64,000 nucleotides of DNA from Candidatus Methanoperedentaceae archaeon. GTDB lineage: Archaea > Halobacteriota > Methanosarcinia > Methanosarcinales > Methanoperedenaceae. The stretch covers positions 1 to 64,000 of the forward strand of contig PQAS01000027.1 of assembly GCA_003104905.1 (NCBI GenBank), read 5' to 3'. The notes under the pieces were generated by a model. That model saw nothing but the letters and a program-made list of their open reading frames with translations. It made no database searches and was not told where the DNA came from. The position numbers were made by a program, and so were the translations under genes. Shown here in pieces: positions 37,467-43,953 of this stretch. Numbering within the stretch: the first letter of the stretch is position 1; each line of letters starts with the position of its first letter.

Positions 37467-37635
37467 ATATGTTGAAAAATGTCAATGGTGAAAGCTTCCA
37501 CAGATTACAAATCCTACCAATAATACATATTACATGATCTAAGATAGTCCACTCTACACGCACATTACCAACTTATTTAATTTTTTGATTATGCAATAAA
37601 TTATTTCTTAAGAACATCATAGAGTATTGGAAAAC
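37467..37635. other. Short intergenic region before the MNT-HEPN pair
   Basis: It contains TTATTTAATT near 37571 as a likely TATA element for the nucleotidyltransferase gene. Nothing else is visible. Confidence 0.35.
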
Positions 37636-37929
37636 ATGATTGACTCTATAAAGTTACTTAAGAATAAACGTAAAGACATATTACGTATAGCTTCGAAGTA
37701 TGGCGCCCGGAATGTTCGCATTTTCGGTTCTCTGGCACGTGGTGAGGCAAGCGAAGATAGCGATATCGATTTTCTTGTAGACATGGAACCTGGACGAAGT
37801 CTCTTTGATCTGGGGGGTCTTCTAATGGATTTGCAGAAGCTATTGGCTCAAAAAGTTGATGTAGTAACTGAAAAGGGGCTTCGTCCACGTATTCGAGAAC
37901 GTGTATTGAAAGAGGCTTTACCTCTATGA
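37636..37929 (+). CDS. mntA: MNT-type nucleotidyltransferase antitoxin
   Basis: This 97-residue protein is a minimal nucleotidyltransferase. GSLARGE with Gly31-Ser32 and the Asp pair [11 protein letters not shown] (43, 45) plus Asp75 form the active site. MntA antitoxins AMPylate a Tyr of the HEPN partner and so silence it. The ATG at 37636 is chosen over the TTG at 37627. It overlaps the HEPN gene by 4 bases. Confidence 0.9.
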
Positions 37930-38258
37930 GAGATTACAATGAAAGATTGTTAGATATACTGGAAGCTATCAAAAATATTGAGAAATACGCTTCACATGGG
38001 CATGAAACTTTTGAGCACGATGAGTTAATTCAAACATGGATCGTTCATCATCTCCAGATTATAGGAGAAGCTGCAAGTGCTCTTCCTGACAGTTTTAGAG
38101 ATAAATATCCTGAAGTCCCCTGGTCAAAAATTATTGGAATGAGAAATATATTAGTCCACAATTATTTTGGTGTTGACGCAGATGTTGTATGGGCTGTTGT
38201 TGTAAATGACCTACCCGATCTTAGGCAGAAGATCGTGAATGCAATTAGAAATAAATAA
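37926..38258 (+). CDS. hepT: HEPN RNase toxin (DUF86)
   Basis: The 110-residue helical protein carries the RNase motif R-x4-H-x-Y as Arg73, His78 and Tyr80 ([12 protein letters not shown]). HepT cuts RNA or tRNA when not AMPylated. The motif is intact, so the pair is probably working. The ATGA overlap with mntA keeps the two in step. Confidence 0.9.
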
Positions 38259-39200: not shown

Positions 39201-39821
39201 TCAAATATTTACTCCTATTATCCCGTCCACCATGCCCGAACCGTCCAATCTGTAAAATGGCACTGCAATCACTTTCGGGGATGAAAGTCCAAGCGAATAT
39301 GTAATATTTCTTAACATATCGGATTTTCCGGCTTCAATACTCAGGAAAATAAAATCAGCTATTTTCTCAGCATCTTTCCTTGAATATGAACATCCCTTTA
39401 GAATGCCTTTCTTTATCACATCGAACTCAGGCTGGTTCTTTGTGAACTCAAGCCCAAGCTTCCTGATATTTTCAAGCTGCGTCTCAAAAGCCGGAACATA
39501 AAACTTTCCAACCTTCTTATCTTCCTTTCCGAAAATATTGGTAAGGAATCCTGTGATAGTGCCGGCTGCATCCCTTGAGTCTATCTTTACATTTGCGTCA
39601 AATACCCAGAATGGATAATATACGACCTGGGAATTCATTTTTTTATTCGGGATGGCAAAATCAATGTCCACGGGAACAAGTTCGTCCTTTTCATTGATAA
39701 GTTCAAACCCTGAATCGCAATTGCCGCAATAGAATACAACGTCTCTGGCATCAGCATTCAAAAGCGATCCGCATTTCTTGCACTTTAATGCTACAAGTCT
39801 CAATCCTGAATTGTCAGGCAT
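39201..39821 (-). CDS. Zinc-ribbon protein of the SPFH operon, no membrane helix
   Basis: The 206-residue product begins with a ribbon (LKCKKCGSLLNADAR, VFYCGNCDSGFELI) and then a beta-rich domain with QVVYYPFWVFDANVKIDS. The phrase YPFWVF/YPLWVI recurs in the two other ribbon proteins of the operon, so they share a domain. It is the last gene and overlaps the stop of the previous one (TAATG). The function is unknown. Confidence 0.75.
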   Translation of the reverse strand: MPDNSGLRLVALKCKKCGSLLNADARDVVFYCGNCDSGFELINEKDELVPVDIDFAIPNKKMNSQVVYYPFWVFDANVKIDSRDAAGTITGFLTNIFGKEDKKVGKFYVPAFETQLENIRKLGLEFTKNQPEFDVIKKGILKGCSYSRKDAEKIADFIFLSIEAGKSDMLRNITYSLGLSSPKVIAVPFYRLDGSGMVDGIIGVNI

Positions 39822-40867
39822 TATCTCATCCCCGGAATAAGACCGCTATCTTTCAATGAATTGAAAGTATCCTGTAATTTCAGGCCTTCCAATCCTGCTT
39901 TCTTTCCCTCCACGACCTCACCGCCATACCTGAATTTCAAAAATCCATATATGATCAGCGCAATACCTGCAAGAGCGCCCACTATAAGCAGGTCATTAGA
40001 ATCGGTTGAATAATATCGCAAAGATGTTGTGAGGAGAAGATTCCCGGCCATAAGGCTTCCTATGAACATGCTCACCCTGAAAAGAGTGCTTCCGGGAGCG
40101 CGCCCATAGAGCAGTTTATTCGCAAGCCCATCCACAACGACCTGGTAATCCCGCTCCTTGAATTTATACCTGATGACCCAGAGAGGATAATAAACTACAG
40201 ACAATTTCTTACCAATGGTATGAAGTTTCTGGAAAATGACCTCATCAATGTCAGCGCTTCTTTTTGCCTGGTCAAGCATCCACTTTTCCGACTCAAGATT
40301 TGCATCTGTTCGTGAATAGGTGGGTTCAAAAACCATTCCCTGCTTCTCAACTGCAGAAATATCAAATGGTTCAAGGTTGCCCGAAATACCCGAATTATCA
40401 ACCTGCTGGACCCCGAATTCGGAAACATCGCATGCCGCTTTATTCCATATGTAATCTCTCATGACCATACGCTCGACCGGTTCCTTTCGTGTAGTAGTCC
40501 GTACATTTCCCTTGTTGTCCGTGTGTGTCTCATGATGAATTTTATTCCCGAAGATCCATCCGCAAACCTGTCCCAGAGACCGCCAGAAGGGTATATGGAC
40601 AAGAAACATCTCCGTGAACTCCGCCTGGTCCTTCAATTTCCTGTCCTTATCGAATTTGCCAAACCACTTCTTTACAATAGCCTTTGCCTCATCCTGTGGA
40701 ACCTTGCTTTTCACATTATACTGGATCACACCCTCATCTCCCATAACAAGAAGCGAAGTCTCGCAATAACCGCATTTCAGGACATTATTTCCTTCCCTGA
40801 GCTCCACTGTCCCCCCGCAGCCGGGGCACATGAGACCTTTAATCACTTCAACTTTTTTTTCTTCCAT
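39821..40867 (-). CDS. Zinc-ribbon membrane protein of the SPFH operon
   Basis: The 348-residue product has an N-terminal ribbon (LMCPGCGGTVELREG, VLKCGYCETSLLV), two copies of the VHIPFWRSL/VVYYPLWVI type region, and two membrane helices near the end. I chose ATG 40867 because AAGGTG lies before it. It resembles bacterial YdjG/YdjH-like proteins that pair with SPFH proteins. Confidence 0.75.
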   Translation of the reverse strand: MEEKKVEVIKGLMCPGCGGTVELREGNNVLKCGYCETSLLVMGDEGVIQYNVKSKVPQDEAKAIVKKWFGKFDKDRKLKDQAEFTEMFLVHIPFWRSLGQVCGWIFGNKIHHETHTDNKGNVRTTTRKEPVERMVMRDYIWNKAACDVSEFGVQQVDNSGISGNLEPFDISAVEKQGMVFEPTYSRTDANLESEKWMLDQAKRSADIDEVIFQKLHTIGKKLSVVYYPLWVIRYKFKERDYQVVVDGLANKLLYGRAPGSTLFRVSMFIGSLMAGNLLLTTSLRYYSTDSNDLLIVGALAGIALIIYGFLKFRYGGEVVEGKKAGLEGLKLQDTFNSLKDSGLIPGMR

Positions 40868-40869
40868 GA

Positions 40870-41619
40870 TCACACCTTTTCAGCGACATATACGGCTGCC
40901 ATTACTACAAAAAATGCAGTTACAAAGTAAGCGAAAAGAACTTCCGGAAAATCGAGCGACATACCTTCCAGGAAAAAAATAATTGCTGCGCCGCCGCCAA
41001 CAACCAGATACGGCAATTCCTGTTTGGATGGGAATTCAAGAGCCATGACTTTCCCTGATGAGCCATCAACGATAGCAGTATAGGTGCTGCCGCCATAACC
41101 ATAATTGAAAATATAAAGCGGGATATGCACGAGGGAACTCTGGCTAATGCCTGTTGCGTCCACTCCATCATTTTTCAGCCATTCCATAGCTGAACCATAA
41201 AGTACGGAAGGCTCTTTTATCGCCGGATTGCCCACATCCTCAGGGCCATAGAACCTGAAATCCCCTGCTGTGATAATAATTGATTTGATCCCCGGTATTG
41301 GTGAAGGGGAAGCCGGCTGGATCTTGATGAGTTCTTTTTCTCCCTGTTTTATCTTGAAATACCAGATGGGAAAAAATATAAATTCTTTTTTTGTAATCTT
41401 TGCTTCTTTATCCAGTCCTTTGACTGTGGAACTTCCGGCCATCCAGCGCCGAAGGGATGCTAAAGCGCCTGCCTCATCAATGGTTGATTTCACCAAATAA
41501 TGGAATACAACTTTGCTTTTATCAATATAAATTGCGGATGAACAATATTCACAGGTTAAAAATGTCTCTCCTTCCAGGACTTTGACATCACCGCCGCATT
41601 GCGGGCATTTTACTTCCAT
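40870..41619 (-). CDS. Zinc-ribbon membrane protein of the SPFH operon
   Basis: The 249-residue product starts MEVKCPQCGGDVKVLEG, then CEYCSSAIYID, a zinc ribbon. The middle contains IFFPIWYFKIKQGEKELI and VHIPLYIFNYGYGGSTYTAI, the shared domain. Two hydrophobic segments lie at the C terminus. ATG 41619 follows AAGGTG; the longer start at 41652 would overlap the SPFH gene. This is the second of the three ribbon proteins of the operon. Confidence 0.75.
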   Translation of the reverse strand: MEVKCPQCGGDVKVLEGETFLTCEYCSSAIYIDKSKVVFHYLVKSTIDEAGALASLRRWMAGSSTVKGLDKEAKITKKEFIFFPIWYFKIKQGEKELIKIQPASPSPIPGIKSIIITAGDFRFYGPEDVGNPAIKEPSVLYGSAMEWLKNDGVDATGISQSSLVHIPLYIFNYGYGGSTYTAIVDGSSGKVMALEFPSKQELPYLVVGGGAAIIFFLEGMSLDFPEVLFAYFVTAFFVVMAAVYVAEKV

Positions 41620-41630
41620 ACGGCAACACC

Positions 41631-42812
41631 TTATTCTATCTTTGCGCCGCACCCTGGACAGAACTTAGCGCCCGGTGTGAGTTCATTGTTGCATTTCGGG
41701 CAATTTGAGAGGAACTTATTTCCGCATCCGGGGCAGAATTTCGAACCTGCCGGTACATCAGCTTTGCATTTCGGGCAGGTTATACCCCCTCCTATCTTGC
41801 TGCCGCAATTAGTGCAGAATTTCGAGCCTGAAGGTAAGTCTGCACCGCATGAGGGGCATTTTATGCCATTGGGGTGCGCCTGTGGTTGCTGCTGCATGGT
41901 TTGTCCCATCTGCGATGCCATCATCATTCCCATACCCATACCTGCGCCAAGCCCGACACCAGCCCCGGCGCCAGCACCTGCTGCCCCGCCTTCCTGTTTG
42001 GCAGCATCCCGCATGGCTCCTCCTGCCTGGAAAGCCAGATATGCTTCCTTTTGTTTCTGGTCTGTAAGACCAAGCGCGCCTATGCCTGAACGCGTATCAA
42101 CTGCTTTTTGGACTTCTTCAGGAAGGTTGATATTAAGTTCAGCGATGCGCATTATCTTGATGCCATATTCAGAAACGTTAGTCTCAACCTTTGAAAGAAG
42201 CATCTGCCCTATCTCATCGAGATATGCGGGCATATCAACAACCGATAATTGTTTCTTTGATTTAAGTTCCCCCAGCGTATCATTCAATTGCATTACGATA
42301 ATGCCTTTTAGCCATAATACGACTTGATCGCTATTCTCAAATCCTTTTGTACCCACCATCTGGGTTATGAATTGTATGGGATTTACGATCTTATATGCGA
42401 ACTGCCCGAATATCCGAAGCCTTACCAAACCAAAATCCTGATCCCTGAATGTCATAGCTTCAGAGCTTCCGAACTTACCCCTCAGTTCACGGCGCTGGAC
42501 ATAATATACTTCTGCAACAGGCTGGACACCGGTGACTATCCTCTGGAGTTCTGTGAGAACCGGAATGTTAAGGGTTGAGAGCCCGAACCTTCCCGGTTTG
42601 TCAAGAACCGTGAGTACTTTGCCATCCCTGAAGAAAACGGCCGCTTCATCTTCCCTGACGACCACATTGTCGTTCCATATGATGTTCCTGGGTATCCTGA
42701 ACAGCACATTTTCACCTTTTGCCGCATCATCCCACATGAAAGTAGTCGAACCCAGAACGCTTCCTCCCGAACCTGCTGTTGTCGGGGTTTTCTTGTCAAA
42801 TAAAAATAACAT
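41631..42812 (-). CDS. SPFH/band-7 protein with three C-terminal zinc ribbons (YdjI-like)
   Basis: The 393-residue protein has an SPFH domain in the first 290 residues (PVLTELQRIVTGVQPVAEVY; ELNINLPEEVQKAVDTRSG), a Gly/Ala/Met-rich linker with MGMGMMMASQMGQ, and three ribbons: CPSCGADLPSGSKFCTNCG, CPKCKADVPAGSKFCPGCG and CPKCNNELTPGAKFCPGCG. It resembles the B. subtilis YdjI family. SPFH proteins make membrane scaffolds. It follows a coiled-coil gene and precedes three ribbon genes, so the five are probably one membrane-stress unit. Confidence 0.88.
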   Translation of the reverse strand: MLFLFDKKTPTTAGSGGSVLGSTTFMWDDAAKGENVLFRIPRNIIWNDNVVVREDEAAVFFRDGKVLTVLDKPGRFGLSTLNIPVLTELQRIVTGVQPVAEVYYVQRRELRGKFGSSEAMTFRDQDFGLVRLRIFGQFAYKIVNPIQFITQMVGTKGFENSDQVVLWLKGIIVMQLNDTLGELKSKKQLSVVDMPAYLDEIGQMLLSKVETNVSEYGIKIMRIAELNINLPEEVQKAVDTRSGIGALGLTDQKQKEAYLAFQAGGAMRDAAKQEGGAAGAGAGAGVGLGAGMGMGMMMASQMGQTMQQQPQAHPNGIKCPSCGADLPSGSKFCTNCGSKIGGGITCPKCKADVPAGSKFCPGCGNKFLSNCPKCNNELTPGAKFCPGCGAKIE

Positions 42813-43346
42813 CTAAATTACCTCCAATCCTGATATTATAGAAATCCTCTTCTCGAAGATCGAGTTAAATTCATTTAATGCCTTTCTAATATCTTTTATT
42901 TTCTGACCTGCATCAGAACCTGTTATGGCGTTGTTCAGTTCATCTGCCATTTTTCCTACTGATTCAATTGTTTGAAGAAGGGAAAGATCCCATTCATACA
43001 TCCTGTTCAACTCTTCCTCTTCAAATCGTATATCCGCTGAAATATTTGAATAACCTTGCTCTGCATGCCGGATCTTGTTTTCTACCTGCCTTGACAATTT
43101 CGTAATATCGCCTATTTCAGACATAAGCCCTATTTCCAGGGCTCTTGTGAGTTCATCCCTGCAATTATCGAATTTGCGGTTTATTTCTCCCATTCTCATT
43201 GCAAGCTGCTGCCTCAACAGGCTATCAGCCGCCCTTAAGTCTTCACGCTTGCGGTATCCCTTAAAACCAGGAATGAATAATTCGATCTTCTTTAACATTC
43301 CCCTATCTTCTTCCACTCTTCTTCGGATATCAGTCATTTTATTCAC
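42813..43346 (-). CDS. Coiled-coil protein heading the SPFH operon
   Basis: The 177-residue protein is helical and has IPGFKGYRKREDLRAADSLL near its start, a pattern I recall from bacterial genes beside SPFH genes. The rest is coiled-coil (EIGDITKLSRQVENKIRHAE). It occupies the place held by PspA in the bacterial YdjFGHI operon. Its stop codon touches the SPFH start codon. Confidence 0.7.
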   Translation of the reverse strand: MNKMTDIRRRVEEDRGMLKKIELFIPGFKGYRKREDLRAADSLLRQQLAMRMGEINRKFDNCRDELTRALEIGLMSEIGDITKLSRQVENKIRHAEQGYSNISADIRFEEEELNRMYEWDLSLLQTIESVGKMADELNNAITGSDAGQKIKDIRKALNEFNSIFEKRISIISGLEVI

Positions 43347-43453: not shown

Positions 43454-43798
43454 TTATTCAATCTCAAGGTGGATCTTCACAGCTTTCTCTATCTTTTTCA
43501 ATATCTCATCCGGAATTATCCCTATTCGTTCTTTCATCCTCTTTTTATCCGCGGTTCTTATTTGATTTGCCTTGACCTTAGAATTGCTTGATACATTTGC
43601 AATATCTTTCTTTATGAAAACTTCAAAAGGATACACTTTCCCTGCACTTGATGTGATGGGAATGATAGTTACAGTTTCAGCAAATTCATTATTAATATTA
43701 TTTGAGATCACGACAGCTGGTCTTGTTTTTCCTATCTCTGATCCCTCAGTCGGATCGAGTTTGACCCAATAAACTTCGCCTCTTCTAATCAATTCCAT
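43454..43798 (-). CDS. mazF: MazF/PemK-family mRNA interferase
   Basis: The 114-residue toxin has the family signatures IRRGEVYWVKLDPTEGSEIG, KTRPAVVISNN and VTIIPITSS, then VKANQIRTADKKRM. MazF cleaves mRNA at specific short sites. I begin at the ATG 43798. The upstream gene that would encode its antitoxin is cut off at its front, so the toxin may be uncontrolled or controlled from elsewhere. Confidence 0.88.
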   Translation of the reverse strand: MELIRRGEVYWVKLDPTEGSEIGKTRPAVVISNNINNEFAETVTIIPITSSAGKVYPFEVFIKKDIANVSSNSKVKANQIRTADKKRMKERIGIIPDEILKKIEKAVKIHLEIE

Positions 43799-43953
43799 CC
43801 CCCGATGTCGTACTCCACTCAAGAGCTAATTCATTATCCTCCTTCTTTCTTGCTTTATACCCTTCACTCAATTCTCTGATAAGGTTGGCTTCTTCTTCTC
43901 TCTCTATACGTTCCCTGATCGCTTCGGCAATAAAGCCGGATTTATTTTTTGCA
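43785..43953 (-). pseudogene. N-terminally truncated MazE/CopG-type antitoxin
   Basis: Before mazF a frame encodes NKSGFIAEAIRERIEREEEA, then ELSEGYKARKKEDNELALEW and STTSGDGID, the end of a ribbon-helix-helix antitoxin whose acidic ALEW tail binds MazF. An in-frame TGA just upstream, next to the cfbB stop, and the lack of any start codon show that the DNA-binding first strand is lost. The fragment overlaps mazF by 14 bases. Confidence 0.65.

What the first reader, a model, noticed from the sequence alone, without database searches (positions are those of the whole stretch)
39201..43346. Archaeal SPFH / zinc-ribbon / coiled-coil operon like bacterial YdjFGHI
Five packed genes encode a coiled-coil protein, an SPFH protein with three zinc ribbons, and three further ribbon proteins that share a YPxWV-type domain, two with membrane helices. 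In bacteria similar genes hold PspA at stressed membranes. Here PspA is replaced by an unrelated-looking coiled-coil protein with GFKGY. This could be a membrane-integrity system not described in archaea.
Basis: partly seen in the sequence, partly recalled or inferred. Interest (0 to 1): 0.62.

Follow-up and report, generated by a model that had tools for sequence, protein, structure and literature searches.

The report
Archaeal SPFH operon with helical partner
Many archaea carry a tightly packed set of genes for a membrane scaffold of the kind bacteria use under membrane stress, but here the scaffold protein is almost always encoded next to an uncharacterised helical protein instead of the bacterial partner PspA.

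Summary
The five-gene operon is real. It runs on the minus strand of a Methanoperedens genome: helical CC protein (GFKGY), YdjI-type SPFH protein with three C-terminal zinc ribbons, then three paralogous zinc-ribbon proteins R1-R3 (R1 and R2 have membrane helices). The likeness to Bacillus pspA-ydjGHI is partly genuine homology. The SPFH protein is PF13421, and R1/R2 are homologous to the YdjG-like gene lying between SPFH and TPM genes in Enterococcus. YdjH (TPM) and PspA are not in the operon. CC shows no profile or fold similarity to PspA/ESCRT-III, and a separate PspA gene exists elsewhere in the genome, so 'PspA replaced' is only true of the operon slot. CC is followed by SPFH in 99 of 100 loci (the exception lies on a short contig). 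In two archaeal phyla CC and full-length PF13421 occur together almost perfectly (16/17 and 39/43 genomes that have either). A small four-helix membrane gene, X, precedes CC in many lineages. Divergent CC relatives sit in other SPFH operons, one beside a Vps4-like ATPase. I read this as a new archaeal variant of the YdjI/YdjG scaffold with CC as its dedicated partner; the membrane-stress role is inferred.

The parts
42813..43346 (-). CC: all-helical protein of 174-177 aa with IPGFKGYRKRED and HAEQGYS motifs; probable start ATG 43337
   Evidence: AF2 helices 4-24, 28-68, 72-93, 110-139, 146-172 at pLDDT 80; distant relative of NCBIfam NF047596, 55 bits
41631..42812 (-). SPFH / Band 7 protein, YdjI type (393 aa), no predicted membrane helix
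   Evidence: PF13421 1.7e-41; hhalign 100% to bacterial SPFH set that includes the Enterococcus protein next to YdjG-like and TPM genes
41637..41864 (-). three C-terminal zinc ribbons of the SPFH protein
   Evidence: PF13240 with 3 stretches, PF12773; CxxC...CxxC x3 in the sequence
40870..41619 (-). R1: zinc ribbon, two alpha/beta-hairpin units with FFPIW / VDGSSG motifs, two C-terminal membrane helices
   Evidence: AF2 pLDDT 86; weak PepSY hits in 4 of 36 members; hydropathy
39821..40873 (-). R2: zinc ribbon, YYPLWV...VDGLANK domain, C-terminal membrane segment(s); YdjG-like
   Evidence: hhalign 99.2% to bacterial YdjG-like set, 97.7% without ribbons
39201..39821 (-). R3: zinc ribbon plus YYPFWV domain, no membrane helix
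   Evidence: hhalign 97% to R1 and R2; hydropathy

Best explanation
The operon encodes a sub-membrane scaffold of the YdjI/YdjG kind. Shown: a soluble SPFH protein with zinc ribbons, three YdjG-like zinc-ribbon paralogues (two with membrane helices), and a dedicated helical partner, CC, made as the first gene and directly abutting SPFH; CC and SPFH are inherited together across archaea. Inferred: SPFH subunits form an oligomer, R1/R2 (or, in other lineages, the 4-TM protein X) hold it at the cytoplasmic face of the membrane through zinc-ribbon contacts, and CC binds the SPFH oligomer through its two conserved loops (PGF-GYR..ED and RHAEQGYSG). It would work as a membrane-associated scaffold that is assembled or engaged under envelope stress, the role PspA and YdjI play in Bacillus. 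CC is a partner of SPFH proteins in general, not a modified PspA.
For: CC is immediately followed by SPFH on the same strand in 99 of 100 loci with room (94 distinct), mostly 0-5 nt apart. CC and full-length PF13421 co-occur: 16 genomes with both, 1 CC only (divergent CC), 0 SPFH only, 278 neither in the home phylum; 39 both, 1 CC only (contig end), 3 SPFH only, 102 neither in a second phylum. CC distances correlate with SPFH, R1, R2 and R3 (r 0.83-0.90; best of 500 permutations 0.17). SPFH and R1/R2 are homologous to the bacterial SPFH and YdjG-like genes that lie next to a TPM gene. The bacterial YdjI needs membrane proteins YdjG/YdjH to reach the membrane (PMC8581546). A 4-TM gene X precedes CC in Methanomicrobiales and Thermoplasmatota and is one family (hhalign 97.5%). 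Divergent CC copies are again near SPFH genes, one in a locus with a Vps4-like AAA ATPase.
Against: No experiment ties any of these archaeal proteins to membrane stress. CC gave no significant fold match and its N-terminal helix is not clearly amphipathic. YdjH, the main membrane anchor in Bacillus, is absent. About a dozen loci with room have CC-SPFH without any R gene, so R proteins are not always part of it. Distance correlation also reflects shared species history.
Confidence: 0.58

Rival explanations
1. CC is a highly divergent PspA/ESCRT-III-type protein, so the operon is a true archaeal pspA-ydjGHI in which PspA has changed beyond recognition and still polymerises on membranes.
For: Same operon slot as PspA (first gene); all-helical; weak Foldseek similarity to CdvB (E 0.8, TM 0.38); CC is common in a phylum where PspA is nearly absent (40/145 against 2/145 above cut-off); one CC relative lies in a Vps4-containing locus.
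Against: No PF04012 match; hhalign CC against archaeal PspA gives probability 0.1% while PspA half against half gives 100%; predicted helices (41 and 22 residues) are too short for the PspA/ESCRT-III hairpin; no PspA or Vipp1 among the 50 structure matches shown; CC and PspA coexist in 5 of 17 genomes.
Confidence: 0.12
2. The operon works on proteins rather than on the lipid membrane: SPFH plus zinc-ribbon proteins form a chamber that sorts or holds membrane proteins, and CC is a lid or cargo adaptor.
For: SPFH oligomers form enclosed membrane compartments (as cited in PMC11188069); the divergent CC copies occur in loci with SPFH, Vps4-like ATPase, beta-propeller and adaptin-like or CARDB proteins resembling protein-sorting ESCRT loci; multiple zinc ribbons suggest protein contacts.
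Against: No protease, chaperone or ATPase in the main operon; the closest studied relative, YdjI, changes membrane fluidity and PspA placement (PMC8581546).
Confidence: 0.25
3. It is an anti-virus or conflict system using a membrane-bound SPFH scaffold.
For: Patchy presence within the genus (only 9 of 30 congeneric genomes have a CC match, two of them divergent); a TIR-domain gene lies upstream of a bacterial SPFH/R2-like pair in Vibrio.
Against: Best defence-library hit for CC is a coiled-coil stretch of 17.6 bits; none for SPFH; no effector enzyme in the operon; found across several archaeal orders with congruent inheritance; no relative in viral contigs or plasmids.
Confidence: 0.05

Closest known systems
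Bacillus subtilis pspA-ydjGHI (PspA, YdjG, YdjH, YdjI)
   Same: PF13421 SPFH protein with C-terminal zinc ribbon (YdjI); zinc-ribbon membrane protein (YdjG) homologous, through the Enterococcus and proteobacterial relatives, to R1/R2; helical protein encoded first in the operon
   Different: No PspA and no TPM protein (YdjH); three YdjG-like paralogues instead of one; CC in place of PspA; gene order differs; often a 4-TM protein X
Bacterial SPFH + TFIIB-type zinc-ribbon pairs (Vibrio, Comamonas, Paracoccus, Tsukamurella; Enterococcus with TPM)
   Same: SPFH gene directly followed by an R2-like gene
   Different: No CC homologue on plasmids; R2-like protein has two ribbons; Paracoccus has TelA and DUF2927 upstream
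NCBIfam NF047596 (LIMLP_15305 family, named after a Leptospira gene)
   Same: All 20 aligned CC proteins match; in the window protein the match is nearly full length (best 6e-18)
   Different: Window protein scores 55 bits against a cut-off of 210; gene neighbourhood of the bacterial members could not be examined
Archaeal ESCRT loci with SPFH, Meth_adaptin type (Makarova et al. 2024, PMC11188069)
   Same: SPFH with zinc ribbon; a divergent CC copy lies in a similar locus in another Methanoperedens genome (L024)
   Different: The window operon has no Vps4, ESCRT-III or adaptin-like gene; the SPFH protein of L024 matches PF01145, not PF13421, and has N-terminal ribbons

Membership tests
pspA-ydjGHI (PspA-YdjI complex) | YdjI-type SPFH (PF13421) with C-terminal zinc ribbon | tested here: met
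   PF13421 1.7e-41, three ribbons; B. subtilis rings as a control for PF13421
pspA-ydjGHI (PspA-YdjI complex) | YdjG-like zinc-ribbon membrane protein | tested here: met
   By proxy: R1/R2 match the Enterococcus gene between SPFH and TPM; the B. subtilis YdjG sequence itself was not available
pspA-ydjGHI (PspA-YdjI complex) | TPM-domain protein YdjH | tested here: not met
   PF04536 has no match in the genome or in R1-R3
pspA-ydjGHI (PspA-YdjI complex) | PspA encoded in the same operon | tested here: not met
   CC lacks PF04012; PspA is on another contig, C20
pspA-ydjGHI (PspA-YdjI complex) | Induction by envelope stress and membrane foci | not testable with these tools
   needs expression and imaging
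PspA/ESCRT-III superfamily (for CC) | Profile similarity to PspA | tested here: not met
   hhalign probability 0.1%, controls 100%
PspA/ESCRT-III superfamily (for CC) | Long alpha1-alpha2/3 hairpin fold | tested here: inconclusive
   AF2 gives shorter helices at pLDDT 80; CdvB only at E 0.8
PspA/ESCRT-III superfamily (for CC) | N-terminal amphipathic helix | tested here: inconclusive
   Hydrophobic moment no better than shuffles (0.38); own PspA 0.14, also not decisive
NF047596 LIMLP_15305 family | Score above curated cut-off (210 bits) | tested here: not met
   55 bits for the window protein; a distant relative, not a member by this rule

The most novel reading that the evidence does not exclude
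CC founds an undescribed class of SPFH-partner proteins that does the job of PspA in many archaea, including lineages with almost no PspA, and that was recruited twice: into a YdjI/YdjG scaffold and into an ESCRT-type locus.
Probability: 0.27. Interest if true: 0.75.

Novelty: new variant of a known kind. Interest (0 to 1): 0.52.

Why it matters
How archaea guard their membranes is poorly known; published Psp surveys found mostly isolated PspA or PspC genes in archaea. This gives a defined operon with one near-obligate protein pair (CC and SPFH), present in cultured methanogens (Methanocorpusculum, Methanomicrobium), that can be tested directly. It also shows that SPFH scaffolds have dedicated partners other than PspA.

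Tried and rejected
CC as PspA: profile comparison negative. CC as TelA, prompted by TelA beside SPFH in Paracoccus: hhalign 0.3%. CC relatives on plasmids and viral contigs: none. Known structure for CC or R1: no significant Foldseek match; PDB sequence searches gave only helical or zinc-ribbon chance hits. Defence library: nothing. CC as a strict PspA replacement by mutual exclusion: not supported in the home phylum. Reaching the Leptospira neighbourhood of NF047596: not possible, since a plasmid locus is not accepted as a centre. Papers: one on LIMLP_15305 (only a list entry) and none for COG4260. An early ORF-picking survey missed genes in G+C-rich genomes and was replaced by six-frame HMM searches.

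Full report
What is there. The five genes lie on the minus strand at 43346-39201, packed with gaps or overlaps of 0, 11, -4 and -1 bp. The genome is a Methanoperedens: a genome of the same genus in the survey has the contig of the BLZ2 record (G018 C23, 91,243 bp, equal in length to NZ_NTMG01000083.1). CC is all helical. SPFH is PF13421 (1.7e-41) with three zinc ribbons. R1-R3 have no Pfam family beyond ribbon hits. R1 and R2 have C-terminal membrane helices; R3 has none. R1 and R2 are close paralogues (hhalign 99.8%) and R3 is related to both (97%). A model of R1 (pLDDT 86) shows a ribbon, two units of helix plus beta hairpin, and two membrane helices; a few R1 and R2 members weakly match PepSY (best 0.0015), which fits the YpeB-related domain reported in YdjG (PMC11237479) but is not proof.

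Linkage of CC and SPFH. One scan of one-genome-per-species contigs gave 175 stretches encoding CC relatives; the 80 kept are all archaeal by record title: Methanoperedens/ANME-2, Methanocella, Methanomicrobiales, Methanomassiliicoccales and other Thermoplasmatota. Across 100 loci with room, 99 have SPFH immediately downstream on the same strand, most at 0-5 nt; the exception lies on a short contig. Of 94 distinct loci, 51 have all three R genes and another 21 have one or two; of the 22 with none, about ten are cut off by a contig end. Whole-genome searches give the same answer from the other side. In 295 genomes of the home phylum every full-length PF13421 protein is in a CC genome (16 both, 0 SPFH only, 1 divergent CC only). 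In 145 genomes of a second phylum there are 39 with both, 3 SPFH only, and 1 CC only that is cut by a contig end; by the coordinates listed, 38 of the 39 pairs lie within 171 bp and one is 1.3 kb apart. Distances between loci correlate between CC and SPFH, R1, R2 and R3 at 0.83-0.90, far above permutations; this includes shared species history.

Relation to bacterial ydjGHI. B. subtilis itself could not be reached, so I used bacterial plasmid loci. SPFH genes there are followed by an R2-like gene in Vibrio, Comamonas, Paracoccus and Tsukamurella. In Enterococcus the order is SPFH, R2-like, TPM-domain gene (PF13421 and PF04536 confirmed), which is the YdjI-YdjG-YdjH set. Archaeal R2 against these bacterial proteins gives hhalign 99.2%, and 97.7% with ribbons removed; SPFH gives 100%. 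The resemblance is therefore homology, not just likeness. The differences are equally clear: the own genome has no TPM protein, and PspA lies on another contig.

CC is not PspA as far as these tools can tell. Profile comparison is blank (0.1%) while controls give 100%. The model (pLDDT 80) shows five helices shorter than an ESCRT-III hairpin, and Foldseek finds nothing significant; CdvB appears at E 0.8. CC's own distant relative is NCBIfam NF047596, named after a Leptospira gene. PspA and CC coexist in 5 of 17 home-phylum genomes. In the second phylum PspA is nearly absent (2 of 145 above cut-off) while CC is in 40. CC is thus not an alternative form of PspA, but it is common where PspA is rare.

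Two further findings. First, a 108-123 aa protein X with four membrane helices precedes CC in Methanomicrobiales and several Thermoplasmatota; both groups are one family (97.5%). Some loci carry X-CC-SPFH without R genes (L058, L077, L121), so X may be an alternative anchor. Second, divergent CC proteins (65-76 bits to the family model) occur in two other Methanoperedens genomes (L024, L025), with fragments in L057, each followed by a 335-400 aa coiled-coil gene and a larger SPFH gene. In L024 the same run of genes also encodes a Vps4-like AAA ATPase and a beta-propeller protein, like the Meth_adaptin ESCRT loci (PMC11188069). This is the best hint that CC proteins belong with SPFH scaffolds that work on membranes, and that CC is distinct from ESCRT-III.

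Mechanism. Shown: gene content, homology, linkage, membrane topology by prediction. Inferred: SPFH oligomer, anchoring by R1/R2 or X, binding of CC through the conserved PGF-GYR and RHAEQGYSG loops, and a role under membrane stress by analogy with YdjI, which needs YdjG/YdjH to bring PspA to the membrane (PMC8581546).

Novelty. Popp et al. (PMC9239133) examined Methanoperedens BLZ2, which carries this operon (L061), and report only its PspA, PspB and PspC genes. Ravi et al. (PMC11237479) discuss ydj operons in Firmicutes. I found no paper describing the archaeal operon, but only open-licence papers were searched.

Noticed in passing
L024:223-14957 (G006:C44): Probable ESCRT-type locus in another Methanoperedens: a 208-aa helical gene, Vps4-like AAA ATPase fused to a DisA-like domain (AAA 6e-38, Vps4_C 1e-4, DAC 2e-16), ABC2-like protein, FGE-sulfatase, divergent CC, coiled coil, SPFH, beta-propeller.
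   Followed up: partly
L046:6850-7185, L068 and others, just upstream of CC: Small four-membrane-helix protein X (108-123 aa) between R3 and CC or alone before CC; no Pfam family for the member tested.
   Followed up: partly
L175:2671-7389 (Paracoccus plasmid): TelA (toxic anion resistance) - DUF2927 - SPFH - zinc-ribbon run; suggests SPFH scaffolds pair with different helical proteins in different lineages.
   Followed up: no
window 43454-43822 (-): PemK/MazF-type toxin gene (PF02452, 3.4e-32) directly upstream of the operon; the upstream genes differ in other loci.
   Followed up: partly
window 37627-38258 (+): Adjacent nucleotidyltransferase-like and HEPN-like genes, by eye an MNT-HEPN toxin-antitoxin pair.
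   Followed up: no
L171:670-5066 (Vibrio plasmid): TIR-domain and TRAFs-binding-domain genes divergent from an SPFH/R2-like pair.
   Followed up: no
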